Shown piece by piece: positions 3,121-63,171 of a stretch of DNA of 63,171 nt (its first letter is position 1; every line of letters begins with the position of its first letter). The stretch is from Basidiobolus meristosporus CBS 931.73. Lineage: Eukaryota > Basidiobolomycota > Basidiobolomycetes > Basidiobolales > Basidiobolaceae. The translations under genes and the position numbers were made by a program. The notes beneath the pieces were generated by a model. It made no database searches. It saw only the letters and a program-made list of their open reading frames with translations, and was not told the DNA's origin. Location: contig MCFE01000518.1 of assembly GCA_002104905.1 (NCBI GenBank), positions 1 through 63,171 of the forward strand, in the 5' to 3' direction.

Positions 3121-3589
3121 TGTTATGAATAGACACAAGGCAGGAGAGTAGAGCTAGGCAAGGCAGAACCAGGAAAGGACTAAGGTGTGGATCAACAAGG
3201 CAAGGCGGATTTCCAAGGCAAGGCTGTTTATTCAAGGCCTGTGTTTATCAGACTGAGGAATACTTAAGGGGGGATAGGACTATATATACTTTTTGGCTAT
3301 ACTGATGCCAAGAGATATTAGCTAATACTAATGGGGTTGTGGGGTAAGGCACAGCAATGGTGCTGGGGATAATGACATAGATGACACGGCACTGAGACAG
3401 GATGGGGAAATGGATTGGGTCACCTGATCATGTGACTAAGTCATGTGACCTAGTATTTCCATATACGGTACTGGACTATGAAAAATACAATGGAAACCTT
3501 CCATGGAATGTTCCATTGTGTAACAATGGTTTGGAATGGCCAGGAACTTTCTGGAAGGTGGTAGAAGGTTCCAGAAGGAATCTCTTGGA

Positions 3590-5379
3590 GTAGTTTGCTA
3601 TGAACCTGCAATAGAAGTTGGCAAATCCCAGGAAGGATTGTACTTCCTTGACTGAGCTTGGAGTTTTCCAAGATTGGACTGAGTCAACTTTCTTTGGGTC
3701 CATGCTTGTTCCCTCAGGGCTGATGAGATAACCAAGAAATTCCACTTCTCTCTGGTCAAATTCACACTTCTCTAGCTTGGCACAGAGACCGGCAGAGTCT
3801 AGTTTTCTCAATACTTTCTTGACATGTTTATCATGTTCATCTTGGCTCTTGGAGTATATGAGAATATCATCAAGGTAGATTACCACAAAATGGTCAAGGT
3901 ATTCACGGAATATGTCATTCATGAGGTGTTGAAACGCAGCAGGGGCATTGGTGAGGCCAAATGGCAATACTTTGTATTCAAAGTGGCCATATCTTGTGCA
4001 AAAGGCAGTTTTCCATTCATCACCGGGCTTGATTCTGACAAGATTGTAAGCTCCTCTCAAGTCAATCTTGGTGAAGACTTGGGCAGCAGATAGCTGATCC
4101 AACAGTGTGTTGATCAGGGGCAGGGGGTAGTGGTTCTTGACTGTGATCTTATTCAAAGCACGGTAGTCCACACACATTCTGAGTGTGCCATCCTTCTTCT
4201 TGACAAAGAGGATTGGGGCTCCAGCACGTGATTTGGAGTGCTGAATAAAACCCTTCTGGAGTTTTTCTTCAATATAACCATGGAGTTCTTTCAACTCCAG
4301 CTGGGAGGGGTTATATATTGGGCCAAATGGAGGGACTTTTCCATCTTCAAGGTCAATAGGGCAGCCATAAGGCCAACGGTCAGGGAGTAGTTCTGCTTTC
4401 TTCTTGTCAAAGACATGGGCAAACTCTTGGTACTTGGCTGGTATGTTTGCTGAGGGGGCTCCTTCAGCTGGCAAGGTATCTTGGGCTGTTGAACTGTTGG
4501 CAACAGTCTTTTCACGGTTATCAGGGTCTGGATATTTCATGAAGTTGACTTGGTGGGATCTGGTGAATGACAGGATCTTGGATTTCCAATCAATACTTGG
4601 ATTGTGGTAGCTCAGCCATGAGCTTCCAAGCACAATAGGATAGTGTGGTGAGTTGATGATGTTGAAGGCGATTCTTTCTTGGTGGGCAGTGTGGGTTATT
4701 ACTGACTGTACTTGGTGAGTGGGAGAGCTTGTAGGTCAAGTCAGTACCACTTGGTTCAGAATAGCTTCCGATAGAAGGTAGCAAGGTAATAAAGACTTCT
4801 GTTTATTTTGTCCAAATCCCGTTGTTCTTCCTGGTTCAATTGGGTAGATATATATATCACTTGGGGGGGCTTAGACAATAGACAATGTGTTATAAAATAG
4901 GGTTGTGAACACCTTCCTGTTATGGTAAGTGTTCTAACTAGATAAGGGCAGGGATAGGAGGGGAGGACGCATGGGGGAATCATAGGGAGGGTACTGGAGG
5001 ACTTTGGGTAGGACTCTGGAGGGAACTCTTGGGAGAACTCTTGGGCGAAGAGTGGGTACTACATTGAGTACTCACAGGCAGTACTGGACAGCTGGAGTAA
5101 GCATGTCTCATGGGTAACGGCACCAGAGGATAGTGATCTTCCATCAATAACTTCTACTTGGACTGGACAGGATTTCAAGGTAACAGGGATAGAGTGCTTC
5201 TGGACAAAGGCTTGGTCAATGAAACAGGATGAAACACCAGAATCAATCAGGGCTAGGGCTGGGACAGGACTGGAGTCAGGGATCTGGATTTTGACAGGCA
5301 TTCTCAAGGACTGGATAAATTTTGTGGCATAGGAAGATTCTTGGATATGCTGGATTTTCATGGGTGGGTCCAGTTGCAA
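3590..5379 (-). pseudogene. Gypsy-1 protease and reverse transcriptase, interrupted by a solo LTR
   Basis: The aspartic protease motif ALIDSGVSSCFID lies at about 5245-5210. The solo LTR at 4690-5076 breaks the frame. RT resumes at about 4633 (LGSSWLSYHNPSIDWKSKIL) and carries the motifs [37 protein letters not shown] and the catalytic YLDD (VVIYLDDILIYS). It ends at FIANYSK, where the deletion joins the LTR. No RNase H or integrase follows. Confidence 0.88.
4690..5076. mobile_element. Solo LTR of another element inside Gypsy-1
   Basis: 387 bp beginning TGTGGGTTATTAC and ending GTACTCACA, flanked by the 5-bp direct repeat GGCAG (4685-4689 and 5077-5081). Gypsy-2 has the uninterrupted sequence at this site. 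The sequence matches neither the copia nor the gypsy LTR of this window, so it represents a further LTR family. Its direction cannot be settled. Confidence 0.8.
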
Positions 5380-14046: not shown

Positions 14047-14573
14047 GTTATGAATAGACACAAGGCAGGAGAGTAGGGCTAGGCAAGGCAGGACCAGCAA
14101 AGGACTTAGGCGTGGATCAACAAGGCAAGGTGGATTTCCAAGGCAAGGCTGTTTATTCAAAACCTGTGTTTGTCAGACTGAGGAATACATAAGGGGGGAT
14201 AGGACTATATTTACTTTTTGGCAATATGGATGCCAAGAGATATTGGCTTATACTAATGGGGTTCTGGGGTGAGGCACAGTAAGTGTGCCAAGATAGAATA
14301 TACTAAAGAACAGACTGGAATATCACATGGAGATATGTCAGGGGTCAGCTGATCATGTGACTAGGTCATGTGACACGTAGTTACCATACATGGCATGGGA
14401 CTACATAGACTCTAATGGGAAGCTTCCATAGAATGTTCTGTTGCGTAACATTGACTTGGAGCTTTCAAGGAGTTGCTAGAATGTAGTAGAACTTTCTAGA
14501 AGGAACTGGGATTTCTTCACTGACTTAATTTGGCTAGATAATTGGAGACCAGGGATGTCATGTGATCACAACA
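14047..14573 (-). repeat. Gypsy-2 5' LTR (527 bp)
   Basis: On the - strand it runs from TGTTGTGATCACATG to TTCATAACA, matching the Gypsy-1 LTR with many substitutions. The TATA-like region is 'actatattta' and the putative RNA start reads AGTCTGACAAA (14179-14169), one mismatch to its primer site. Confidence 0.85.
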
Positions 14574-17207
14574 GGTGGAGAATATACCTCAAAGCTCTTC
14601 ATCCACTTATGCAGAATTCATGGGATAAATCAAGAGACTATTGTACTATACTCCCCACAGCAAAATGGCGTAGTAGAATGTGCTAGCAGATCAATAACTG
14701 ATATGGCAAGATCTATGATCCATGATCAAAAATTATCCTATGATTATTGGGTGGAATCAGTTGCCACTGCTGTATACCTTAAAAATAGGAGTTATAGCAG
14801 AATACTTTGTAATTCTACTCCATTTGAAGCATGGTATAGGTACAGACCAAGTGCAGAACATCTAAGAATATTTGGGTGTACAGCATATGCCAAAAAACTG
14901 GCCATAAATCAGGCAAAATTTGAGCCAAAAAGTGTAAAATGCATATTTTTGGGCTACTGTAATGAGAGTGAGGCATACAGACTCTACAATACCAAAGCAA
15001 AGAAGATGATCAAGTCCAGGGATGTGTTGTTTGATAAAAATTCAAAATTTTCACAAAAAATGACATCAGATGATGACAAAAATCTGATCTCAAGTCCACA
15101 AATTGTCAGGATTGAATCAGAGCAAAACAGTGGAAATTCTTTCACTCCAGAGGACTCTACAACCATGATTCAGCCTAAAATAGTGCCCATGAATATCCTA
15201 GAAGTGAGCATTCCAGTAGCAAATGCCAGGAGATCAAATCAGACAAGAAATAGCCCAAATTTCTATATCAATGAGGATACAAACTTAGCCTATGCCTATT
15301 CAGTCCATCTTGATGAGCCCCAAACTGTAAAAGAGGGCCTAAATAGCCCTCAGACAAGGTTTCGGAGATCTGCAATGACTGAGGAATATCAGACCCTGAC
15401 AGAAAATCAAACTTGGGACTTAGTCAAATTACCAATCAACCAAAAATCTATTGGATGCAGATGGGTCTTCAAGACAAAATGTAAGGCTGATGGTCAATTG
15501 AAAGATACAAAGCAAGACTTGTGGCCAACGGATACTCTCAAGCAAAAGGACTTGACTATACTGAGACCTTTGCACTGGTAGCCAAGTTTGATTCCATCAG
15601 ACTAATATTTGCTATTGCAACCAACTATAAGTCTTTTATTCATCAAATGGATGTAAAAACTGCATTTTTGCATGGAGAACTTGATGAGGATGTGTATATT
15701 AGCCAGTGTGATGGGTTTGTTGACCAAGATAACCCCCATTTAGTCTGCAAGCTTAAAAAGTCTCTATATAGTCTTAAATAATCATCAAGAGCCTGGAATT
15801 GCAAGATAGATTCTTACCTGAAATCTTTGATTTTCAAAAGGAGTAATGCTGACTATAGTATATACTATAAGCCAGATAGAGCAAATCCAGCTCTATTAGC
15901 TCTATATGTGGGTGATCTTATTGTAGCTGCCAAAATCCTAGAAACATTGGAAGAGACTAAATCCAGCCTGTCTAAGGAGTGCAAGATGTCCAATCTAGGA
16001 GAACTCAATTACTACTTAGGGACTAAGCTATTCATAGACAGAAGTACCCAGACTATTGTCCTAAGCCAATCCAAGTATATTCAAGATATACCAAACAAGT
16101 ACCAGATGGAAGACTGTAAACTAGCAGCTACCCCAATGGAGACAAACCTTAACTTAGTTATAACTCCACCAAATCAAGAGAGCTTGGTGCCATCTGAAAG
16201 CCCTGACTTTCCTTAGCAATCTATGGCTGGTAGTCTCATGTAAAGCATGCTTGGAACACATTCAAATATCTCATATTCAGTAGGAGCTGTCAGCCAACAT
16301 AATCAGAACTATGGATCTGATCATATAGCAGCAGTTAAGCAGATTTTTAGATACCTAAAAGGGACTGCTGATATCTGCTTAAGATACACTTATAAGGATT
16401 CAAAAAAGGATTGTGTGGAATACTCTGATGCAGATTGGGGCAAAATTTGAAAGACAGTAGATCCACCAGGGGATACATCTTTCTTTACCATAAAGGAGCA
16501 ATTTCATGGAATTCAAGAAAGCAACCAACTGCAGCACTTTTCACCACTGAGGCAGAGTACATGGCAGCCTGTGAAGCTACAACTGAAGCAATGTGGTGAA
16601 GAAAGCTTTTTGCAGATTTAGGCCTATGTTAAAAAATGCCTAAAACTTTATTTCAAGATAATTAACTAGTTGTCACTAGCTAATGGCTTGGTAAATATTT
16701 CTGTAATCATTTCATCTGAAGGACAGTAAACTAAGCTAACTAAGCTACTCTCTATAGCTTTATTAATAATATTTACCAAACCATTAGCTAGAGACAAGCT
16801 TGAATATCCTAGGTCAAAATCAGGACTAGTCAGCATGAACATCTAGCTGAGTGGGAGTGTTGTAAAAATTTGTAATTCCACCTAAATATTCACCTAACTT
16901 AGCCGCTAAGATCATTACCTTCAAATCCTAGAGAATACTGACCAAATTTCTTGTTGTGATTTACTTAGAATAATTTCACCAAAATACCAGGTACCCAGAA
17001 CATGAAAATTCTCAAAGTTGTCCAAACAGCCCCAAGCTTTGCACACATGTTCTTGGGACCTTTCTTAACCTATTTTATATGTTTGTTATGCCAAGACCAT
17101 GTAAAAGTATAAATACTACTTTTACATTCAAATAAATCTTCAAGTGAAAGCCACATAATCTACTTGTCCTCCCAATCACTTTCAATATCTCCAAGACTCT
17201 TACAATA
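14574..17207 (+). mobile_element. Copia-3: 5'-truncated copia element (integrase to 3' LTR)
   Basis: It starts abruptly in the integrase core (GGEYTSKLFIHLCRIHG) and runs through RT and RNase H to the LTR at 16858-17207. The long first frame to 15581 includes SPQQNGVVECASR and [14 protein letters not shown], then a frameshift to [12 protein letters not shown]. The catalytic motif is YVGDL, so the first catalytic Asp is lost. Stops occur at about 15779, 16214 and 16448, and the RNase H part is heavily decayed. Confidence 0.87.
16858..17207 (+). repeat. Copia-3 3' LTR
   Basis: It starts TGTTGTAAAAATTTG after 'ctgagtgggag' and ends TTACAATA (one base changed from the family's TTACAACA). Its length matches the other full LTRs. 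Confidence 0.88.
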
Positions 17208-53290: not shown

Positions 53291-53600
53291 AGGGAAGGGA
53301 GAGTTACCATTATGGTGAAATCTTGATTTTTCCAAGTAGATACTCAATTATTGTATATAAAAATAATTAAGGCAGCCAAGAGTTCTGCAATCTCTTAAGT
53401 AAATAATCCAAGTTATGCTCGTCAATATGACAAATATTAATGCAAAACCTGGAATCACCTTCTCAAAGAAAGGGTTATGGCCTTTTAGGTAACTCTGCCA
53501 AGGTGCACAAAGGTCATTAAGGGCTAGATCTTTGGGCCCTTTGGCTTTCCACAACTTTGCAGCTATCTCAGTTACTGGACAAGAGTTGGCAAGGGCTAGG
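53291..53600 (-). mobile_element. Telomeric LINE unit 1: 3'-end fragment
   Basis: The 3' end toward the centromere carries the shared motif (hairpin ACCAT-T-ATGGT at 53306-53316, then 'gaaatctt'). Upstream on the - strand is the RT C-terminal part: LCAPWQSYLKGHNPFFEKVIPGF, close to RSMWQSYLQVHTPFLLHLIPGW of unit 6. It is truncated 5' at about 53600. Confidence 0.65.
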
Positions 53601-53765
53601 GGGGTGACAATCATCAACAGGTGAAATCTTTATTTCAGGTGAGACAGAAAAGCCAATGCTACTGTTGTATATTTGATATAAGATTGTGTAGCTGAGGGGA
53701 TTCAGATGGTGAGTTAATTGGAAGAAATGTTCCAACTTCAGTGCTCAAGATACTGTTCAGTGGCA
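53601..53765 (-). mobile_element. Telomeric LINE unit 2: short 3' fragment
   Basis: It begins after 'ggctagggggg' with 'caatcatcaacaggtgaaat', followed by 'tctttatttcag' and 'agccaatgctactgttgta', the same 3' UTR as unit 4 ('agccagcgctactgttgta'). About 165 bp, truncated at the next junction. Confidence 0.8.
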
Positions 53766-54190
53766 AGGGGGGAGATGGTCACCAACAGGTGAAATCTTTA
53801 TTTTGGTTGAAACAAAGAATCCAGAGTGTGTTGCTGAGGGAAATAGACAGGTAAGCTAATAAGTAGAAATGAAAGCTTTTGGTGCCTGAGGAATTATTCA
53901 TTGGGAATGGGGGTAGCCAAATGGGTAAGAATGGCATATCAACAACATTAGTAAGGGGAACATGATATAAACTGAAACTCCCCATGAAGGTAGTGAGCTA
54001 CTTCAGATATTGCTGCCAAAGGTCTGTCAAGCACATCATATGGGCCAACTTGGAACCTCTGACTACATGATATAATTAGCACACTTCTTGACATCTGGAT
54101 CTCCAGGTAAGATTCTCCAGCAAGAGCCAGGGGTACTATGATGTGTGCTCTCCCAGGCCTTGATCAGTGAGTTGTTGCAGTGTTGTGCAT
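53766..54190 (-). mobile_element. Telomeric LINE unit 3: 3' fragment with RT C-terminal relic
   Basis: The junction is 'caaggggggagatggtcacc', then the shared 3' end. The sequence follows unit 4 (54590-55010) with many changes up to about 54185, covering the end of RT (..TPGSCWRI..GDPDVKK). 54190-54536 is unrelated AT-rich DNA with no gene. Confidence 0.75.
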
Positions 54191-54540
54191 CAATGTTTAA
54201 GACTTAGCCAATTTTACTCTGTGAGAAAATCTAGTACCCTAACTGATTTTCCCTAATCCAAATATAACTAATCCCAGTTATGGTTTATTTTATCACATCT
54301 CAGAATCTACTTTTAGCCATCACACCTGATCATTCTCAAGTGATCATTACATCCTCAACTGTTCTACTAAGTCTTTGCAAGTGATTAGTCATCTGAGATA
54401 TAGCCACCACTTTGCAGTTGCTAAAACATCAGCTGAATGATGATGCAATTTTCATATATCTTATACACCTAGCAATACCCCATCTGATTTCAATTAGTCC
54501 AGTCTCTTGGGGCTTACTAATTTAACTTGATCAGAAACGG

Positions 54541-54570
54541 GTTAGGGTTAAGGGGGGGAGGGTTAGGGGG
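54541..54570 (+). repeat. Internal telomere-like junction
   Basis: 'gttagggttaaggg' and 'gagggttagggggg' directly precede the 3' end of unit 4. This is the most telomere-like of the internal joins after those at 56143 and 61767. Confidence 0.85.
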
Positions 54571-56142
54571 GAGACAGTCACCAACAGGTGAAATCTTTAT
54601 TTCAGTTGAAACAAAGAAGCCAGCGCTACTGTTGTAGCTTTGACACAAGAGTGTGTAGCTGAGGGGAATTTGTAGGTAAGTTAATAAGAAGTGATGATAG
54701 TTCTTCAGTGCTCAAGACACTGTTCAGTGGGAAGGGGGGTAGCAAGAGAGGTAAGAATGACTTGTGAACAACATTAATGAGGGGAATGTGATAAGGATTG
54801 ATATTCATCATAAAGGGAGTGTGCTGCTGCAGATATTGCTGCCAAAGGTCTGTCAAGTACTTCAGGTAGGCCAGCTTGGGTTTTTCTGACTGCAGAATAT
54901 ATTGAGCAAACTTCTTGACTTCAGGATCTCCAAGTATAGTTCTCCAGCAGGAGCCAGGTGTAGTGTGGTGTGTTCTCTTCCAAGCCTTAATCAGTGGGTT
55001 GCTGCAGTTGTGAAGTCTGAGGTATAATCTGGTTCTAAGGTAGAGAAGTCTGATCTTATAGGGCATAAACCCAAAAGCACCAAGAATAGCATGTCTGTAG
55101 GGGCATTCAGGCAGATGAGGCACCAAGGAGGTAATGCACCATACTGCAAACTTGTCAAGCTTAGTGCAGTCTCTAGAAGTAAGAGAGAGAAGTGGTAAGC
55201 CAAATTCCAGGACAGGGAAGACAAACTGCTTGAGTAGAAGGAGGCAGCTGGGAGCTGAAGTTGTAGGAGGAGTAACAGCCAGTAGCTTGTGGAGTGCCTG
55301 TCTTGCCAGGATAATTCTCTTCTTCAGGTGTGCTCCAGAGTCTAGTCCAGTAGGAAGGAAAGGAAAGCCAAGATATGTAGCAGAAACCTGAGCAGGTAGA
55401 GTGGAGTTCTCCAAGTTGATGGGAGAGCCCAAAGGTACTGTCTTTGCAATGGAAAGCTGGAGATTATTCTTCTGCAGATACTGGTGGATGGTCTGGGAGT
55501 CTTGTTGCACATTGGAGGAGGATATTCTGATGTCATCAGCAAAGAGAGTAACCAGGCAGTCAGCTGAGAGTCTTGGGAAATCATTCAGGAAGATGGCAAA
55601 CAGTATAGGACCAAGCACAGAGCCTTGAACCACTCCATTAGGAACTGAGAACACAGCTGATTGCTCACTTGGGTGCAGAATTCTTGCTTGTGGATCCAGA
55701 AACAGAGACCTGACAAGGAGGGTGAGAGAGGTACTGGAGAATCATTGCAACTTGGACCAAAGCAGATTTCTGTCAACTGAATCAAAGGCCTTAGTAATAT
55801 CAAACAGAACAGAGGGATACTTGCACTGGAGAGAGTGATCTTGGCTAAGTATGACTGCATATTTCAAGGAGAGGCCAGGAACAAAGCCAAACTGTGCAGG
55901 ATGAAACTTGAGGGAGTCAGAGTAGAGCTCCTGAGCAAGCAGAAGCTCAAACACCTTTCTGCAGGTGGGCAGCAGAGATATTGGCCTGTAGGAGCTAGGA
56001 TCCAGGTGCTTTCCTTTACCCTTGTACAGTGGCAGAACATTTGCAAAGGACCATTCCTCAGGAGTAGAAAGCTGGGCTGAGCATTGCTGAAACAGTGGAA
56101 GCAGAAGTGCAGACATGGCCTTGGTACTAGTCTTCAGAAGCT
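54571..56142 (-). mobile_element. Telomeric LINE unit 4: 5'-truncated reverse transcriptase copy
   Basis: It carries the 3' end motif (54576-54606), a short 3' UTR and then RT coding to the 5' junction at 56142. Truncation is inside RT at YELLKTSTKAMSALL, fused directly to the TTAGGG side of unit 5. It is typical of incomplete reverse transcription. Confidence 0.88.
54626..56142 (-). pseudogene. LINE reverse transcriptase of unit 4 (one internal UGA)
   Basis: About 505 codons. RT motifs: LYKGKGKHLDPSSYRPISLL, ILFDITKAFDSVDR-type (SVLFDITKAFDSVDRNLLW), NGVVQGSVLGPILFAIFLND and the catalytic LFADDI. A single TGA at 55742-55744, inside ..WSKLQ*FSSTSLTLL.., interrupts an otherwise open frame to the stop at 54626. 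The N-terminal endonuclease is absent because of 5' truncation. Compared with unit 6 the protein is clearly diverged, so the two are separate lineages or old copies. Confidence 0.87.
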
Positions 56143-57044
56143 CATAGGGTTAGGGGGGATGATAATCACCACAGGGTGAAATCTTTATTTAATCATAAAT
56201 ATAGAAGCCAAGTTCAAATATGAATATTTGAGATGCAGTAAGCCTACAAGATAAACTTGGACTTTGCTGTATCCCAAATATCCTCAATATCAAAGTCTAG
56301 AGGAGAATGTAGCAAAACTGCTTGTTCACTGTAGTATTTCTTGAGGAAGTTTGTGACTTGAAGGGAAGGAGAGTTTTTCAACAAGCTGGTAAACCTTTTG
56401 AGGAGTTCTTTTTCCAGAGAGAATGGTACAAAGAGTGGAATGTCTAAATGATATCTGAATATATGCTCTGAGGGCTCCCAATCCAGCATATTTTTGACTT
56501 CCTCTGTAAAATCTTCAACAATATCTTTGTCAAGAATAACTTCCAAGAGATCCCTGGCAATGTACTGAATGTTAATAATCTTAGGCATATGAATACCTAG
56601 GTCCTTGAGGTAGTTTCTTTGTTCTGAAATTGGGAGATAGCCAGCATCTCTGAAATAGCAAACAGCCCAGTTGGCAGTGGGAGGAGTATCAGGGCTGACA
56701 GGGAATCTTCTTCTGGCTTTAGGGAGCACTGGCTTAGTTGACTGTCTTGTTGGAAGGGCAGCTGGCTTTGGATGATCTTGAAGTGCTTGGGAGTATGTCT
56801 GAGTATGAATGGCAGGAGTAGCTGGTTGCTGACAGTGTTCAGATTGACTGGAGGAAGTGCTGGTTGAGGGGTTGCAAGGTAAGGAAGAAGCTGAAAGAGA
56901 AGTAGAGAGTGCAGGGTGAAGTTCAGAGAGAGTTTTGAAAAGAACCTGGATCTGAGATTTCAACATAGAGTTTTCAGCTTCAAGAAGTGAAACTCTTTGT
57001 TCAAGGTAGGAAGTCTGTAAAGAGTGAAAGTTGGGTAAAGACAT
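56143..57044 (-). mobile_element. Telomeric unit 5: ORF1-only element
   Basis: The 3' junction is 'catagggttagggggg' (56143-56158), followed by the hairpin TCACC-acag-GGTGA and 'aaatctttattt'. After a ~75-bp 3' UTR comes a complete ORF1. The 5' end coincides with its ATG (CCCCTAATG at 57050-57042), against the 3' end of unit 6. No RT follows. Confidence 0.85.
56244..57044 (-). CDS. ORF1 protein of a gag-only telomeric retroelement (unit 5)
   Basis: 266 aa, intact. The start is the ATG at 57044 (MSLPNFHSLQTSYLEQRVSL), aligned with MPSLHSLQISFLEERLAL of the second copy. Residues ~5-45 form a leucine-rich coiled coil. A Ser/Pro/Thr-rich linker follows, then a compact domain beginning NWAVCYFRDAGYLPISEQRN with EVILDKDIVEDF and WEPSEHIF, and a helical C-terminus (RFTSLLKNSPSLQVTNFLKK). 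Coiled coil plus RRM-like domain plus C-terminal domain is the general plan of LINE ORF1 RNA-binding proteins; assignment to that fold is inference. Presumed role: binding element RNA and delivering it to chromosome ends. There is no zinc knuckle. Confidence 0.85.
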   Translation of the reverse strand: MSLPNFHSLQTSYLEQRVSLLEAENSMLKSQIQVLFKTLSELHPALSTSLSASSLPCNPSTSTSSSQSEHCQQPATPAIHTQTYSQALQDHPKPAALPTRQSTKPVLPKARRRFPVSPDTPPTANWAVCYFRDAGYLPISEQRNYLKDLGIHMPKIINIQYIARDLLEVILDKDIVEDFTEEVKNMLDWEPSEHIFRYHLDIPLFVPFSLEKELLKRFTSLLKNSPSLQVTNFLKKYYSEQAVLLHSPLDFDIEDIWDTAKSKFIL

Positions 57045-57131
57045 TAGGGGAGTGAAAGTCACCAAGTTGGTGAAATCTTTATTTCAGTTAAGAACTAATC
57101 TAAGTACAAATAAAGAAGCCAATTAAGAGGT

Positions 57132-58748
57132 CTAGAACCTCTCTAATAAGTAATCTAATTTATGTTTTGTTTCATCTCTAATGTTTGTTTCAATAAAGTA
57201 AAGCTCATCAGGGGTAAATATAAAATTTAGGGGTTTTGGGGGAAGTACAAATTGTAGATGTTTCTGATCAATATAATCCAAGACTGGAACCCAGCCTGGG
57301 ATTAGGTGTAGTAGGAAAGGTGTGTGGACTTGTAAGTAGCTCTGCCACATAGATCTTAGATGGTCCTGAGCTAGTAGTCTTGGTTTCTCAGCTTTTTGAA
57401 GTTTTGAAGCAAGCTCTGTTACTACAGCAGTGCCAACCAGGGTGTGCCAGCAAGAAGATTTCAGGGAGGAGTTAGATTGAAGCCATTGTTTGATGGAGGG
57501 GTTATGTGATTTCTGAAGTTTGACTAGGAAGGAAGCCCGGAGATAGATCATTTGGATTTGGTATGGGTAGAACCCAAAGGCTCCATTAGTTGCATGAACA
57601 TAGGGAGATACTGGAAGATAAGGTACCAAGGATCTGATACACTGATGGAGAAATTTATCCAGGTGGTGAAGCTCTCTGGAGGTTAGGGGTATAATGTGGA
57701 GACCAAATTCAAGTACCGGCAGTACATACTGCTTCAGAAGTATAGGGATCTTTTGAATTGGAGTGTCTGGAGTGACTACTACCAGAAGCTTTTTGAGAGC
57801 CTGTTGGGCAAGACGGATCCTATTATTCAGGTGGAGCTTTGAGTCAATCCCATGTTGACAAAATGGCAGACCTAGGTATATTGCAGTTTGTTGTGGCAGA
57901 ATGCTAGTGTTCTGTATAGTTGTAGTGCATCCAATTGGGACTGTCTTGGAAATTGAGAGTGAGAGGTTGTTGGCAGCCAAGTACTTCTCAATGATGGCAG
58001 TGTCTGCTATGGGATTAGGAGTAGCAATCTTGATATCATCCGCATAGAGAGTTAGTAGTGGATAGGGAGAGTCTGGTGAGGGGCCTTTTGGAAATAAAGG
58101 AAAGTCATGTAGGAATATCACAAATAGTAAGGGACCTAGAACAGATCCTTGGACTACTCCATTTGGAACCTCATAAGTCTCTGATGTGCAACTTGGATGC
58201 AAAATTTTGGCTGAGTTCTCACAAAATAGAGAACGTACAAGAAGGGTCATTGGTAGTGTGGTAACTGCTAATAGCTTTCTCCAAAGCAGAGCTCTGTCCA
58301 CAGAGTCAAAGGCTTTAGTAATGTCAAACAGAATGGTTGGCAATGAGAATTGCAGTGAATGATCATGACTTAGCACTACAGCCATATCCAAGGAGAGTTT
58401 GGGCAAGAAGCCAAACTGAGAAGGATGGAATGGATATAGTTGAGATTGCAAGGATCTTGCTATTATAAGCTCAAAGATTTTCCGGCAGGTTGGTAGGAGT
58501 GAAACTGGCCGGTAAGAACCTGGGAGTGAGTGTTTCCCCTTCCCTTTGTATAAGGGTATTACATTTGCCTGTGACCAGGCCTTTGGGGTAGTCAATTGTT
58601 GGGCACAGATAGAGTAGAATGGGAGAAGTAAGTGACTCATTTTGGAGTAGCACACCCGGAGTAGATTGTAGGTAATCAAGTCATGTCCAGGTGCAGTATT
58701 TGCAGGAAGCTTCTTTAAAATTTTCTCCAGAAGCTTTGCTGTAACCAC
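57132..58748 (-). CDS. LINE reverse transcriptase domain of unit 6 (intact segment of ORF2)
   Basis: 538 codons open from the GTG/ATG-like start at 58748 back to a stop at 57132; the true ORF2 begins upstream but is frameshifted. Non-LTR RT motifs in order: GKHSLPGSYRPVSLLPTCRK, ILFDITKAFDSVDR, EVPNGVVQGSVLGPLLF, TLYADDIKIA (catalytic ADD) and SISKTVPIG. The C-terminal ~200 residues (thumb and beyond) include FGLHIIPLTSRELHHLDKF and SMWQSYLQVHTPF, shared by units 1, 3 and 4. No RNase H or CCHC is evident. Function: copying element RNA from a primed 3' end, here presumably at the chromosome terminus. Confidence 0.88.
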   Translation of the reverse strand: MVTAKLLEKILKKLPANTAPGHDLITYNLLRVCYSKMSHLLLPFYSICAQQLTTPKAWSQANVIPLYKGKGKHSLPGSYRPVSLLPTCRKIFELIIARSLQSQLYPFHPSQFGFLPKLSLDMAVVLSHDHSLQFSLPTILFDITKAFDSVDRALLWRKLLAVTTLPMTLLVRSLFCENSAKILHPSCTSETYEVPNGVVQGSVLGPLLFVIFLHDFPLFPKGPSPDSPYPLLTLYADDIKIATPNPIADTAIIEKYLAANNLSLSISKTVPIGCTTTIQNTSILPQQTAIYLGLPFCQHGIDSKLHLNNRIRLAQQALKKLLVVVTPDTPIQKIPILLKQYVLPVLEFGLHIIPLTSRELHHLDKFLHQCIRSLVPYLPVSPYVHATNGAFGFYPYQIQMIYLRASFLVKLQKSHNPSIKQWLQSNSSLKSSCWHTLVGTAVVTELASKLQKAEKPRLLAQDHLRSMWQSYLQVHTPFLLHLIPGWVPVLDYIDQKHLQFVLPPKPLNFIFTPDELYFIETNIRDETKHKLDYLLERF

Positions 58749-59186
58749 AATTGGAGATGTTGGCTGCTGGATATGTTACCAGTATGGTAGAAAGGAGGAG
58801 TGGGATGCACGGTTGAATCAAAGAATATAGGGGCTAGTTTGTCTGGTGATGGTATACTCCTTGCTTGGGGTCTCATGGCTTTGTATACTCTTGATATGGA
58901 CCTTGTGGTGGCATTCATATTTACTAAGGGCAAGGTATCCATGATATGAGCCCATAATCTATATGCTCAGTGATCTGTAGTGACTTGGAGTAGGAGATTG
59001 CGCTTTCCAGGAGGTTCTGTGTTTTTGGGTTAGGGAAATCATAGGTAGCTGGAATTTAAGGCAGAAATGATGGATTTCCATTTAAGTTGGTTTGCAGATG
59101 GCTTTTGGTAGGACTTGGTGGGCAGGGCCAGACAGCCAGTGATTATGATGAAATGCTGGTAAAATAGCCATAATGCATTTATATCA

Positions 59187-59981
59187 TCACAAATCCATGC
59201 AGGTGAGCTGGGAAATGCATATTCTGTAAGCAAGGATAGGTAGTTGGCAAAGTCCTGTGTCTGTGACACTGAAGCTTTGGCTGGCAGGATTGTAAATGGC
59301 TGAAGAAGGGTGCCAATTGGTAGGGTTTTTCTGGACAGAAATGATAATATGTATTGGCTTGTGATCAGATTTCTCTAGTGAACCACAGCTGATATCCTCT
59401 GGAATGCTTGTAACCTGGTGGATGTACTGTAAGGCAGCTGGAGTAGCTGTTACCCAGTCAACACAACGTTGAGCTTGCTGAGTGTTTACAGTGACCAGAT
59501 GATTTTGTCGGAGGAACTTTGTAAAGTGCTCCTCTTGGGTTCTAAGTCTGGATGAAATAGTGGTGATATTTTCAGGGTGGGGGATATTTATATCTCCCAC
59601 TACCATACAAGGGATTGATGAGCTATTGATGAATTCTGATGTGGCCAAGAAAATTGCCAGTGTTATGGAGTTAGACAGAGATGGAGGGAGATAGATAATA
59701 ATGGCTACTATAGTTGGAAGTGTTAGAGCATAGCAGTAATACTCATAGATGATGGATACATTTGCTGAGGGTGCAAGCTTAGAAGATGAAAGAGCAACAA
59801 GTGCCATTGAGTGAGCTGGAAATTTTGGGTGAGCAGATGAATATGCATTCAGTCTAGAGGGAAGTTTTGGCAACTTAACATCAATTAGTAGGAGCAAGGA
59901 ATATTCCTTTTTCAGTAAGTTTTCTAATTCAGCTACAGTTGGAGTGATGGAGTTGCAATTGAGTAAGAGTATGTTCTGTAG
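59187..59981 (-). pseudogene. LINE ORF2 N-terminus: APE-like endonuclease (unit 6)
   Basis: In the frame directly after the ORF1 TGA it reads LQNILLLNCNSITPTVAELE, matching the usual start of LINE endonucleases. VVGDINIPH (GDxN) and SDHKPIHI (SDHxP) are the conserved catalytic motifs. At the place of the metal-binding Glu in 'LQE' the sequence has LLLLID, so Glu appears to be Asp. The frame is lost near 59270 by an indel; a shifted frame continues to 59039 (YAFPSSPAWICDDINALWL). Presence of an endonuclease separates this element from endonuclease-free telomeric Penelope-like elements. Confidence 0.85.
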
Positions 59982-61465
59982 TCAGGCAGACTCTGAGGTT
60001 GCCTGTTCCTGCTGAAACTCTTGCACTGCCCTTTGTAAATTTCCAGAATTATTCCACAACTCTTCAAATGGAGCTTGTGTAATGTCTTTCAGGATTCTAA
60101 TTGCTTCCTCTTTCAAGAAGTAGGCCACATCATAGGTTGGAGCCTGTTTCTTAATGGCAGCAAAGAAAGCCATAATTGCCATGTGAGCTGGGGCTTGTTG
60201 AATATTCCTGGCTCAGTGTCCATTGACTCTGGTGGAATGATTGTGAATTTGGTAGGCACCCAGTTTAGATTTTTTGCCAGATACTTAGTCAATGCAGTGG
60301 AGAAGTTTCTGTCTACAATCATTTCTAGGATCTTTCCTCTTCTCCAAGCTAGGTTAACAATTTTTGAAGTGTCAATATTTAGAGAGCGGAATGTATATCT
60401 GATGTTTGATATAGTAGTCCATGGAACATTGGCAAAGTATAGCAAGGACCAATTCTGGAGCTGAGGTAAGTTTGCTGGAGGCTTATAGGTAGACTTCCTG
60501 GCAGGTTGTGTGGTAGGCTTTAGTGTTTCCAAGGTAGCAAGTTGTGGTTGAGACTTTTTGGAATTACGTATGACTTTGGAAAGAATTCTGCCAGCAACTG
60601 TGTCAGGAATGTTAGTACTCATTGATGGTGCAGGGCCTGGCTCCTGGTACTGCTTTTGTAGAATACTTGAGTATGTCTCTTTTTGTTTTCCTTTATCCAA
60701 TGTGCTATGCCTTGGAATAGGGATTTTGGGGAATAGAGACTTCAGGTATCAACTCTGGGGTCTGGTGATTGTCCAACATTGTTGCTTGAGCTTCCAGCTT
60801 TTCCTCTAAGATTTGAACTCTCTGCTTAAGCTCATCATTTGACGCTATAAGTGTTGCATTGTTTGGAGCCAGGTCAGGTGTTGAGTTATGAAGGCAGGTT
60901 GAGCAGCATTCTAACTCCTTTGTTTGGTCATCCAACTTATCTTCTAAGGTTTGAACCCTCAATTTGAGTGCACCATTTGAGGTTAGAAGCTCCAAGTTAT
61001 CAGCCTGCAACTTCTTTAGATCCCTGAATATCTCAAATATCTGTGCCTGCAAGTCTTTAGCAGTGATATGTTCTGATGGGTACTATTTCCTCTAGGAGTT
61101 CTTCTTGAGCCAGGTGAGTATTGGGACTTGAGCACTCTACTGAAGGAGTTGCTGGAATTTCCTCAATGTCTGACAAAACTCCTTCACTTGCAGCATCAGT
61201 TGTATGATTATCCTGAGTAGCAGCAACAACCTCAAGTTCACAAGGACCAGTTGAAGTAAAACATCTCTTGGGTGGGACTATCTCAAGAGGCTTGGGTGGG
61301 ACTTTTGCTTTGAATGGTGAGGTACTAGTATCAGGAATTGGGACTGGGACAGAAGCTATGGTGTCTATTTCAGCAGCAGTTGCTGTAGAGCTACTGGGGC
61401 TCTGACTGGCCAGTTTTTTGGTCTTTGCCTTCACTCCTGCTACCAATTGGTCAAGACCACAAATC
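59982..61465 (-). pseudogene. LINE ORF1 of unit 6 (frameshifted)
   Basis: Successive frames together cover an ORF1: 61446-61057 (Ser/Pro-rich N-terminal region), 61052-60705 (two coiled-coil stretches with LEDKLDDQTKELE and LEEKLEAQATMLD), 60700-60113 (NWSLLYFANVPWTTISNIRY then KILEMIVDRNFSTALTKYL, the same domain as in units 5 and 8) and 60182-59982 (AIMAFFAAIKKQAPTYDVAYF). Breaks lie near 61075, 60712 and 60180; each is consistent with a 1-2 nt indel. It ends in TGA followed by CTA, and ORF2 continues in the same frame. Confidence 0.8.
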
Positions 61466-61770
61466 TTTAGGGAGGAAAGTCACCAAGTGGTGAAATCTTA
61501 TTTACTTATGACAAGTATCTAAAGAAGCCAAGTTAATCTGAAGTTATCTAGAAAGCTAGGTCTGAGAGATATCTTCCTGGTAAGCCAGTCTGAGAGTTGA
61601 GAAGCTGAGTGTACTATATTTCCTAGTTAGCTAGTCTGAGAGAGTTTCCTGAAAGCCAGCTGAGAAGTGAGAATCCAAATATATCTGAGCTAAGTTATAC
61701 TGTTTGCGTAGCTGAATTGTGCCGGAATGCAGTAGACTGGGGAACTGAGATGAATTTCTGGCAATCTTAG
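61466..61770 (-). mobile_element. Telomeric unit 7: short non-coding element, copy A
   Basis: About 295 bp between 'ctttaggg' (61466) and 'cttaggttaggg' (61766). It is the same element as unit 9, with 'gtcaccaagtggtgaaatc' at its 3' end. Compared with unit 9 at least ten differences are the loss of one base from a doublet or homopolymer (gtggtact to gtgtact, ctggttt to ctgttt, gtggccgg to gtgccgg). No coding frame. Confidence 0.85.
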
Positions 61771-62672
61771 GTTAGGGTTAGGGGAGGGAAAGTCACCAAA
61801 GTAGGTGAAATCTTTATTTGATTTCAGACAAGTCTAACTACAAATAAAGAAGCCAGCTGGGAATAGAAGATTCCCAAAGTAAATACTAAGTTGAATATGA
61901 ATAAATCTAAGCTAAAGTTAAGGCAGTATCCCAGAGTACACTGGAGTTCAGGTTCATGGGGGAGTGAAGTAGATAAGCTTGAGAGATATAATAATCTTTT
62001 AAGAAGTGGGTAACAGCAGGTGAAGGGGAGTTTTTGATAAGTGAAGTGAATCTTGAGATCAGAGATTCCTCTAATGAGAAGGTCTTGTAAACTGGAGAAT
62101 CAGGAAACTCTTTGAAGGCATGGTCAGTAGGTTCCCAGTAAAACTGGTCAGAGACATTTTGAGAGAATTGTGTTGCAATACTTTTGTCAAGTACTACCTC
62201 CAGAGTGTGATGGTTGATAAATCTCATGTTAACAATCTTGGATAAGTTGTAACCTTGTTGCTTGAGATACATCCTATGCTCAGATATAGGAATAAACTCC
62301 ACATTGGCAAAGTAGCAGACAGCCCAGTCAGTAGCAGGAGGCAAATCAGAAGTGGCAGGAAACTTTCTTTTAGTCTTGGGAGGAGCAGCAGGATGTCTTG
62401 AGGAAGCAGGAACAGACTTTTTGACAACTTCAGAGTAGGAAGAGTGAGCAGGAGCAGATGATTCTTGGGGAGTCTTGTTGGCAGGAAGAGTTGGCTCAGG
62501 GACAATAGATTCTTGCAGATCAGAGAAGGCAGAAAAGAGCTTTTGAACTTGTTTCTTGAGTAGAGCATTTTCAGCTTCAACAAGTGCAAGCCTTTCCTCA
62601 AGGAAAGAAATCTGAAGGGAATGGAGTGAAGGCATAAGAAATAAGAAGAAGAGGGTAAGATGGGGTGGGTGG
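61771..62672 (-). mobile_element. Telomeric unit 8: second ORF1-only element
   Basis: The 3' junction is ggttagggttagggg, then agggaaagtcaccaaagtag (hairpin TCACC-aaagta-GGTGA). A ~85-bp 3' UTR, complete ORF1 and ~30-nt 5' leader reach the junction 'gggtgggttagggg'. Same architecture as unit 5 but clearly diverged in sequence. Confidence 0.88.
61907..62635 (-). CDS. ORF1 protein of a gag-only telomeric retroelement (unit 8)
   Basis: 242 aa, intact, ATG at 62635. A coiled coil (MPSLHSLQISFLEERLALVE then NALLKKQVQKLFSAF) is followed by a Ser/Pro linker, a domain with DWAVCYFANVEFIPISEHRM, LEVVLDKSIATQF and YWEPTDHAF, and a C-terminal RFTSLIKNSPSPAVTHFLKD, YYISQAYLLHSPM and WDTA. It aligns end to end with unit 5's protein at moderate identity. 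Two diverged yet open copies indicate that ORF1 is kept under selection in its own right. Presumed RNA-binding gag-like protein; function not shown. Confidence 0.87.
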   Translation of the reverse strand: MPSLHSLQISFLEERLALVEAENALLKKQVQKLFSAFSDLQESIVPEPTLPANKTPQESSAPAHSSYSEVVKKSVPASSRHPAAPPKTKRKFPATSDLPPATDWAVCYFANVEFIPISEHRMYLKQQGYNLSKIVNMRFINHHTLEVVLDKSIATQFSQNVSDQFYWEPTDHAFKEFPDSPVYKTFSLEESLISRFTSLIKNSPSPAVTHFLKDYYISQAYLLHSPMNLNSSVLWDTALTLA

Positions 62673-63030
62673 GTTAGGGGAGGAAAGTCACCAAGTGGTG
62701 AAATCTTTATTTACTTATGACAAGTATCTAAAGAAGCCAAGTTAATCTGAAGTTATTCCTAGAAAGCTAGGTCTGAGAGATATCTTCCTGGTAAGCCAGG
62801 TCTGAGAGTTGAGAAGCTGAGTGGTACTATATTTCCTAGTTAGCTAGGTCTGAGAGAGGTTTCCTGGAAAGCCAGGCCTGAGAAGTGCGAATCTGAATAT
62901 ATCTGAGCTAAGTTATACTGGTTTGCGGTAGCTGAATTGTGGCCGGAATGGCCAGTAGACTGGGGGAACTGAGATGAATTTCTGGGCGATCACTGGCCAT
63001 ATTTTCTAGGCAAATCTGGCCAATTAGCAT
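62673..63030 (-). mobile_element. Telomeric unit 9: short non-coding element, copy B, adjoining the telomere
   Basis: About 350 bp. The 3' end is gtcaccaagtggtgaaatct (after ttagggg) and the 5' end is fused directly to the terminal TTAGGG repeats at 63031. Inside are four 5-bp-stem, 4-nt-loop hairpins at 62758-62771, 62787-62800, 62835-62848 and 62863-62876. The stems alternate CCTAG/CTAGG and CCTGG/CCAGG, and each hairpin is followed by TCTGAGAG or a near variant. No reading frame. It is non-autonomous, comparable to a SINE that uses the LINE's 3' end. Confidence 0.85.
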
Positions 63031-63036
63031 TTAGGG

Positions 63037-63077
<41 letters not shown>

Positions 63078-63171
63078 GGTTAGGGTTAGGGTTAGGGTTA
63101 GGGTTAGGGTTAGGGTTAGGGTTAGGGTTAGGGTTAGGGTTAGGGTTAGGGTTAGGGTTAGGGTTAGGGTT
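63031..63171 (+). repeat. Telomere, (TTAGGG)n
   Basis: 141 bases of TTAGGG repeats in the orientation expected for the right chromosome end, interrupted once by TTTAGGG (63055-63061). The window ends inside the repeat, so true telomere length is unknown. Confidence 0.98.

What the first reader, a model, noticed from the sequence alone, without database searches (positions are those of the whole stretch)
53291..63030. Head-to-tail array of same-orientation non-LTR retroelements capping the chromosome under a TTAGGG telomere
At least nine units, all on the - strand with 3' ends toward the centromere, are joined at about 53290, 53600, 53770, 54560, 56150, 57045, 61470, 61780 and 62675. Most joins carry TTAGGG-like or G-run sequence immediately before the shared 3' end. 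This is the arrangement expected if element RNA is reverse transcribed from the 3' G-strand end of the chromosome, as for Drosophila HeT-A/TART. Known fungal cases (MoTeR in Magnaporthe; endonuclease-free Penelope-like elements in basidiomycetes) differ in element type. A LINE with APE-like endonuclease, gag-only partners and short partners stacked beneath TTAGGG repeats looks undescribed to me. Terminal attachment is inference; insertion into telomeric repeats by endonuclease cleavage (TRAS/SART style) is the alternative.
Basis: partly seen in the sequence, partly recalled or inferred. Interest (0 to 1): 0.95.

Follow-up and report, generated by a model that had tools for sequence, protein, structure and literature searches.

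The report
Telomere-capping retrotransposon arrays in a fungus
The end of this probably fungal chromosome is a stack of broken copies of several kinds of selfish retroelements, all facing the same way beneath the normal telomere repeats; the same stacks occur at many other chromosome ends of this genome, and they look as if elements are repeatedly pasted onto worn chromosome tips, with telomerase sealing each one.

Summary
Confirmed. Nine units at the stated joins, all sense on the - strand, lie below a 142-base TTAGGG cap. They fall into five families with a common 3' hairpin: two LINEs (ORF1 with zinc-ribbon-like and coiled-coil parts; ORF2 with APE-type endonuclease and RT), two gag-only elements, and a 519-nt unit with Pol III A/B boxes (a tRNA-like SINE). 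Genome-wide, 1,611 exact 3' ends match. All 69 distinct ends tested, on contigs over 60 kb with known length, lie within 22.2 kb of a contig end and point to it; one 313-kb contig carries mirrored arrays at both telomere-tipped ends. At least two internal arrays exist (exceptions). Units are separated by about one telomeric repeat (median 5 nt before a G-run; 140 of 147 at most 18 nt) although terminal tracts are 142-233 nt. Truncated ends join telomeric sequence with excess microhomology. Best reading: element RNA is reverse transcribed from the G-strand 3' end of short or uncapped chromosome ends, HeT-A/TART-like, while telomerase also works. Endonuclease insertion into telomeric repeats remains possible. 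The fungal telomeric LINEs I read about (MoTeR, FoTeR, Cnl1) are CRE/R2-group elements. The LINE type, gag-only partners and telomeric SINE look new.

The parts
53291..53597 (-). unit 1, old 5'-truncated relic; 3'-end hairpin core TTACC..GGTGA
   Evidence: 71.5% to the one other copy found
53598..53765 (-). unit 2, B-type LINE 3' fragment, relic
   Evidence: median 81% to other B copies
53766..54558 (-). unit 3, B-type LINE 3' part, relic
   Evidence: median 76%
54559..56149 (-). unit 4, B-type LINE, 5'-truncated; RT C-terminal part in frame 54626-55741; telomeric tract and a possible 2-nt false start (GGGGGGGAG|GGTTAGGG) just before it
   Evidence: RVT_1 E 2.1e-11
56150..57044 (-). unit 5, C-type gag-only element; frame 56244-57083, first Met at 57044 (coiled coil plus Gag C-terminal domain)
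   Evidence: 42% identical to the D Gag, 34% over 79 residues to the B LINE ORF1
57045..61467 (-). unit 6, E-type LINE: RT 57132-58775, EN 59187-59981, ORF1 part 60113-60748; frames broken
   Evidence: RVT_1 E 6e-21, Exo_endo_phos_2 E 5.4e-4 below cut-off; 94-99% matches in other loci
61468..61771 (-). unit 7, A-type SINE-like unit, 5'-truncated
61772..62668 (-). unit 8, D-type gag-only element; frame 61907-62710, first Met near 62635
62669..63029 (-). unit 9, A-type SINE-like unit, cut short by the telomere
63030..63171 (+). terminal TTAGGG telomere repeats, 142 nt, contig end

Best explanation
A telomere-dedicated consortium of retroelements. Two LINEs (B, E) supply an RT with an APE-type endonuclease; two gag-only elements (C, D) and a tRNA-like SINE (A) borrow it through a common 3' tail (UUCACC-loop-GGUGA hairpin followed by a C-run). 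Shown: the families, the orientation and end location in the sample, the shared tail, short tracts, truncations and microhomology. Inferred: the borrowing; that the RNA's C-rich 3' tail (with or without CUAA) pairs with the G-rich 3' end of a short or uncapped chromosome end, which primes cDNA synthesis; that RT stops at the RNA 5' end or earlier; that telomerase, or the tail of the next RNA, adds about one TTAGGG through 1-3 nt of microhomology; that the next unit is then attached and telomerase finally builds the 142-233 nt cap.
For: Orientation: 122 anchors toward the nearer contig end and 0 the other way in 37 held segments (loci were chosen by hits, many segments do not reach a telomere, and in C27 and C80 the end side was assumed). 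Location: 37 of the 100 listed 3' ends lie on 11 contigs over 100 kb, all within 22.2 kb of an end and pointing to it; 33 of 100 listed E-type ends, on 28 contigs over 60 kb whose length I had, likewise, median 5.9 kb; one end is in both samples, so 69 distinct. Contig C424 (312,558 b) has telomere-tipped arrays at both ends in mirror orientation. Tracts: of 147 unique junctions, median 5 nt before the G-run, 140 at most 18 nt, largest 41; 11 telomere-tipped contigs have outermost interstitial tracts of 0-20 nt under terminal tracts of 142-233 nt, probability about 4e-10 under uniform insertion. Microhomology: mean 1.59 nt at 79 truncations (about 1.47 without one outlier of 11) against null 0.38, sd 0.09. 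Of 127 distinct 24-mers before the tract, only the A full-length end (13 contigs), one F and one D place recur between contigs, plus 2 near-identical pairs; the 3 cross-contig duplicates removed beforehand all follow the A full-length end. Units of only 15-50 nt, then TTAGGG and a new start, in four loci. An E unit follows a cut copia-type sequence at C45:14633 through TTAGGG. SINE: A and B boxes together in 0 of 5000 dinucleotide shuffles; 32 distinct full-length matches, 31 of 518-521 nt and one of 490.
Against: The B-type ORF2 keeps the APE residues Y, GDxN, D and SDH, an APE fold nearest to TRAS1, and frames of 922 codons in at least 15 listed copies, so cleavage of telomeric repeats is possible. 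A TERT-like domain and TTAGGG caps show that these elements are not needed as sole telomere. Two internal arrays, at C558 95.4-98.8 kb of 218 kb and C726 56.8-59.8 kb of 69.6 kb, the latter pointing inward, break the rule. Age gradients are not significant in 3 of 4 arrays. The tract counter stops at the first odd base, so a few tracts are longer than counted (C405:140507 is visibly longer than the 7 nt scored). Of 147 junctions 21 had no comparable copy and 7 stayed unresolved, and 19 of 98 resolved truncations did not continue in telomeric phase. No new insertion was observed.
Confidence: 0.6

Rival explanations
1. TRAS/SART-style insertion: the APE endonuclease nicks the TTAGGG strand within telomeric repeats and that nick primes reverse transcription; later insertions into the remaining repeats build the array.
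For: APE domain kept, fold nearest to TRAS1 EN; the 3' junction follows a GGG phase throughout the scored junctions (the scan itself asked for a G-run); telomerase repeats are present.
Against: Interstitial tracts are about one repeat, also at the outermost junctions below 142-233 nt caps; 5' junction phase varies with microhomology rather than being fixed.
Confidence: 0.25
2. Recombination: de-capped ends copy other arrays by break-induced replication through interstitial TTAGGG, as reported for part of MoTeR array growth.
For: Family F (TTAGGG|TGTAGGTG..., Kelch/SNF2-like ORF on the opposite strand) has the same fixed proximal end and variable distal truncation; a 148-bp tandem duplication at C365; passages in PMC7367193.
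Against: Among 122 truncation points only 2 near-identical pairs and 2 places shared by two contigs, and no truncation junction was lost by removing duplicates; fixed full-length 5' end of the A unit at 21 of 147 junctions, followed by different families.
Confidence: 0.1
3. Assembly artefact: arrays at contig ends are collapsed or chimeric repeat joins.
For: Draft of 1311 contigs; telomere triplets very unequal between strands (8002 against 103); the two internal arrays could be chimeras.
Against: The same grammar at many independent contig ends, telomere-tipped contigs, and mirrored ends of C424.
Confidence: 0.03

Closest known systems
Drosophila HeT-A/TART/TAHRE
   Same: Tandem arrays; gag-only element (HeT-A) beside RT-bearing partner (TART); assumed attachment to the 3' OH of chromosome ends (PMC4700185, passages); 3' ends toward the centromere (recalled).
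   Different: Telomerase repeats and a TERT-like domain present here; a SINE partner; a probable fungus rather than a fly.
Bombyx TRAS1/SART1
   Same: LINE bound to telomeric repeats (PMC10088271 section 9); APE-type endonuclease (recalled); best PDB fold match is the TRAS1 EN, 1wdu.
   Different: Tracts of about one repeat, gag-only and SINE partners; clade membership not tested.
MoTeR1/2 (Magnaporthe), FoTeR (Fusarium), Cnl1 (Cryptococcus)
   Same: Fungal, telomere-bound; MoTeR arrays are head to tail with short TTAGGG tracts, a non-autonomous partner and truncated copies seeded with telomere; Cnl1 forms subtelomeric arrays (passages of PMC7367193; sections 3, 18, 19 of PMC12857005; passages of PMC12810828).
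   Different: Those are placed with CRE/R2-group elements and MoTeR1 and FoTeR carry REL domains; here an ORF1 plus an ORF2 with an APE endonuclease, Gag-coding partners and a unit with Pol III boxes.
tRNA-derived SINEs that share a LINE 3' tail (recalled kind)
   Same: A box, B box, short unit, 3' tail like the LINE's.
   Different: Copies sit in telomere-bound arrays; Rfam and ARAGORN do not call the head a tRNA.

Membership tests
HeT-A/TART system | Head-to-tail array, 3' ends toward the centromere | tested here: met
   122 against 0 anchors; 69 of 69 distinct ends tested for distance; two internal arrays excepted
HeT-A/TART system | Gag-only element plus RT-bearing partner with homologous Gag | tested here: met
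HeT-A/TART system | No telomerase and no short telomeric repeats | tested here: not met
   TTAGGG caps; Telomerase_RBD 40.5 and 34.7 bits, cut-off 25
HeT-A/TART system | Priming from the free chromosome end | tested here: inconclusive
   tract and junction statistics favour it, no direct observation
TRAS/SART (R1 clade) | APE-type endonuclease | tested here: met
   Pfam hits below cut-off
TRAS/SART (R1 clade) | Sequence-specific nick inside telomeric repeats | tested here: inconclusive
   GGG phase at the 3' junction but variable 5' phase
TRAS/SART (R1 clade) | RT in the R1 clade | not tested
   no named reference RT set at hand
MoTeR/FoTeR/Cnl1 (CRE/R2 group) | REL-type endonuclease | tested here: not met
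   ORF2 has an N-terminal APE fold, with an ORF1 upstream
Penelope-like (Athena/Coprina) | Penelope-type RT without APE endonuclease | tested here: not met
   APE fold present; closest solved RTs by sequence are LINE-1 ORF2
tRNA-derived SINE | Pol III A and B boxes at tRNA spacing | tested here: met
   positions 11 (1 mismatch) and 54, 0 of 5000 shuffles
tRNA-derived SINE | Head recognisable as a tRNA relative | tested here: inconclusive
   alignment to nine host tRNA places, best z 6.0; Rfam and ARAGORN give no hit
tRNA-derived SINE | 3' tail shared with a partner LINE | tested here: met
   common hairpin and flanks in families A-E

The most novel reading that the evidence does not exclude
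Retrotransposons and telomerase share the job of chromosome-end extension: a set of LINE, gag-only and SINE RNAs competes with telomerase for uncapped ends, and chains of units are laid down in one episode by the RT jumping from one RNA to the CCCUAA/C-run tail of the next, so that arrays are long tracts of cDNA built at the tip rather than separate insertions. It would include a SINE dedicated to telomeres.
Probability: 0.3. Interest if true: 0.9.

Novelty: new variant of a known kind. Interest (0 to 1): 0.75.

Why it matters
HeT-A/TART are usually read as a substitute for lost telomerase. Here the same division of labour (gag-only element, RT-bearing LINE) appears with telomerase repeats still in place, in a probable early-diverging fungus, and extends to a SINE-like unit. 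With 1,611 exact 3' ends in one genome it makes it testable whether end-attachment evolves before telomerase is lost, and how a LINE and telomerase compete for one primer.

Tried and rejected
Telomerase-RNA read-through: a filler TTAGGGTGTAGGTGTTATAG... seemed a copy of telomerase RNA, but it occurs 80 times and extends for over 5 kb; it is another telomere-bound family, F. Abortive starts inside the C45 terminal telomere (three of the 11 rows): rejected, since GGGGAGAT belongs to the 5' end of a further family, G. C45:14633 and C32:3325 were labelled D by my script; one search lists them as E and they are treated as E. Rfam and ARAGORN gave nothing on the A head. P0002 is not identical to any listed place in the genome (best 98% over part; 68 of 1599 candidates scored), so the species is not proven. 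RT clade not placed. Paper searches for telomeric SINEs, Basidiobolus telomeres and telomeric LINEs of early-diverging fungi found no description of this; one search listed one frog genome paper with the phrase 'subtelomeric SINE' (PMC10794172, listing only, not read). Rows left out of counts: 63 of the 100 places lie on contigs of about 20 kb or less and were not used for distances; 67 of the 100 lie on short contigs or contigs whose length I did not look up. Of 165 junctions, 3 were dropped for short flanks and 15 as duplicates (12 within one contig, 3 between contigs, all after the full-length A end).
Full report
Observation. The window is a whole contig (G000:C778, 63,171 b, of an 89-Mb genome in 1311 contigs). 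Its last 10 kb hold nine units in one orientation below a TTAGGG cap. The shared 3' end (window + strand: G-run, then GTCACC-loop-GGTGAAATCTTTATTT, with variants) recurs at each join.

Organism. The best named RT relative is from Basidiobolus meristosporus CBS 931.73. That predicted protein repeats an RT stretch several times, as expected from head-to-tail truncated units. It matches this genome at up to 98% over part of its length. I take the host to be a Basidiobolus or close kin; this is inference. For B. ranarum, numerous small chromosomes are reported, estimates about 60 to many hundreds (PMC3281927, passages), which would fit the many telomere-tipped contigs.

Families. B LINE: ORF1 with a weak zinc-ribbon match and coiled coil (below Pfam cut-offs), ORF2 with APE-type endonuclease and RT, open over 922 codons in C3. 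E LINE: window 57045-61467, broken frames, 94-99% matches elsewhere. C and D encode only a Gag-like protein; the two are 42% identical to each other. The C protein is 34% identical to the C-terminal part of the B LINE ORF1 over 79 residues, and the D protein 29% to that of the E LINE over 90 residues. A: 32 distinct full-length matches in held loci, 31 of 518-521 nt and one of 490, with an A box at 11 (1 mismatch) and a B box at 54, a combination seen in 0 of 5000 dinucleotide shuffles. Among the 100 listed places, by loop sequence counted by hand: B 48, A 28, D 12, C 6, E 6. Two more telomere-bound families, F and G, are not in the window's array.

Shared tail. In RNA sense the five families end in UUCACC-loop-GGUGA followed by a C-run. 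The stem is nearly invariant and the loops differ, so covariation was not tested. G-runs before the 3' end vary: A 2-10, B 3-10, D 3-6, C 4-6; one E, 4; F 3 in 21 of 21.

Location and orientation. 1479 forward and 132 reverse exact 3' ends. TTAGGG triplets are also skewed, 8002 to 103, so contig orientation probably explains the skew. Distances: 37 of 37 ends on 11 contigs over 100 kb and 33 of 33 E-type ends on 28 contigs over 60 kb point to the nearest contig end, at most 22.2 kb away; these are 37 and 33 of the 100 places that each listing showed, with one end in both. C424 has mirrored arrays at both telomere-tipped ends. Exceptions: the RT search (225 matches, 68 of 1599 candidates scored) led to an internal array at C558 95.4-98.8 kb of 218 kb, and a left-pointing array at C726 56.8-59.8 kb of 69.6 kb, inward of that contig's right-end array. 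Each keeps one orientation; no telomere or opposing array was seen in the 4.9 and 5.8 kb fetched beyond them; at C558 the base joins non-array DNA through GTTAGGGG. A third suspect, C217, is a 13.8-kb contig with all anchors one way. The two look like internalised former ends or assembly joins; this is inference.

Junctions. In 147 unique junctions the telomeric tract before the G-run has median 5 nt, 140 of 147 are at most 18 nt, maximum 41; the counter stops at the first odd base, so some are undercounted. In 11 telomere-tipped contigs the outermost interstitial tract is 0-20 nt under terminal tracts of 142-233 nt. 21 junctions follow the fixed 5' end of A, 21 had no comparable copy, 98 truncations were resolved against a longer copy, 7 were left; 79 of the 98 continue in telomeric phase, with mean microhomology 1.59 nt against 0.38 expected (sd of mean 0.09; one outlier of 11 included, a few rows begin inside telomeric sequence). 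Of 127 distinct 24-mers before the tract, three recur between contigs (A full-length end in 13, one F and one D place in 2 each), and there are 2 near-identical pairs. Very short units of 15, 24, 43 and 50 nt, each followed by TTAGGG and a new unit, occur at C291, C32, C237 and L070; starts of 2-4 nt at C323, C778, C512 and C45:17292 are suggestive only.

Endonuclease. The B-type N-terminal 240 residues fold with pLDDT 85.6. The best Foldseek match is the TRAS1 endonuclease 1wdu (E 1e-9, TM 0.63 and 0.69), with APE-type repair enzymes, L1 and R1Bm endonucleases close behind, so TRAS1 kinship is not established. G125, D126, N128, D171 and H202 are invariant and Y93 and D201 nearly so across 18 sequences, while the position where others have Glu reads Asp here (with the translation; the catalytic assignment is recalled and by eye).

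Mechanism. Short tracts, microhomology, private truncations and aborted starts are what end-primed reverse transcription on uncapped ends would leave, with telomerase (TERT-like domain at C880:173109-173423) sealing each product. Random insertion into tracts of the present length is excluded as a model; insertion aimed at the boundary, or repeated cutting of short tracts, is not. Template jumping between RNAs would explain the near-constant single repeat and is my boldest reading.

Prior work. MoTeR arrays are head-to-tail with TTAGGG tracts from half a repeat to over 20, have a non-autonomous partner, and truncated copies carry telomere seeds; MoTeR1 has a putative REL endonuclease (PMC7367193, passages). 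FoTeRs are telomere-flanked and group with MoTeR1, Cnl1 and CRE elements in RT and REL-domain trees (PMC12857005, abstract and sections 3, 18, 19). Cnl1 forms subtelomeric arrays and is nearest to MoTeR (PMC12810828, passages). [quoted passage not shown] HeT-A/TART statements come from passages of PMC4700185. I found no report of APE-type telomeric LINEs in fungi, of gag-only fungal partners, or of a telomere-dedicated SINE (one frog paper with 'subtelomeric SINE' listed but not read); the library lacks most subscription papers.

Noticed in passing
L049:2222-6721 (C32:12222-16721), L050 from 5366, C80:1400-7588: Family F: fixed proximal end TTAGGG|TGTAGGTGTTATAG, 80 exact copies (70 and 10 by strand), internal tandem repeats of about 155 bp and a Kelch/SNF2-like ORF on the strand opposite to the LINEs; truncated distally at many points. 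Possibly a telomere-linked helicase region copied to ends.
   Followed up: partly
C880:192180-193055; C45:18195-19040: Family G: telomere-bound unit starting TTCTAGTGCTTTATTGGG with its own 3' hairpin (TTGCAC/GTGCAA) and 86-bp repeats at its 5' side.
   Followed up: partly
C558:95400-98750; C726:56750-59800: Internal arrays, the C726 one pointing away from the right-end array of the same contig: fusion relics or assembly joins.
   Followed up: partly
whole genome G000: Telomere triplets 8002 on one strand against 103 on the other: most telomeres seem to sit at contig right ends, unexplained.
   Followed up: no
C249:12600-12700 (L097): A TTAGGG tract begins directly at a cut tRNA gene, next to the contig end: looks like telomere addition at a break.
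   Followed up: no
window 3476-4735 (-) and 14538-15581 (+): Other retroelements upstream: an RVT_1 ORF and copia-type pieces.
   Followed up: no
L066:813-1240, L059, C237 segment: Tandem repeat of about 101 bp in the 5' region of what looks like the gag-only D element.
   Followed up: no
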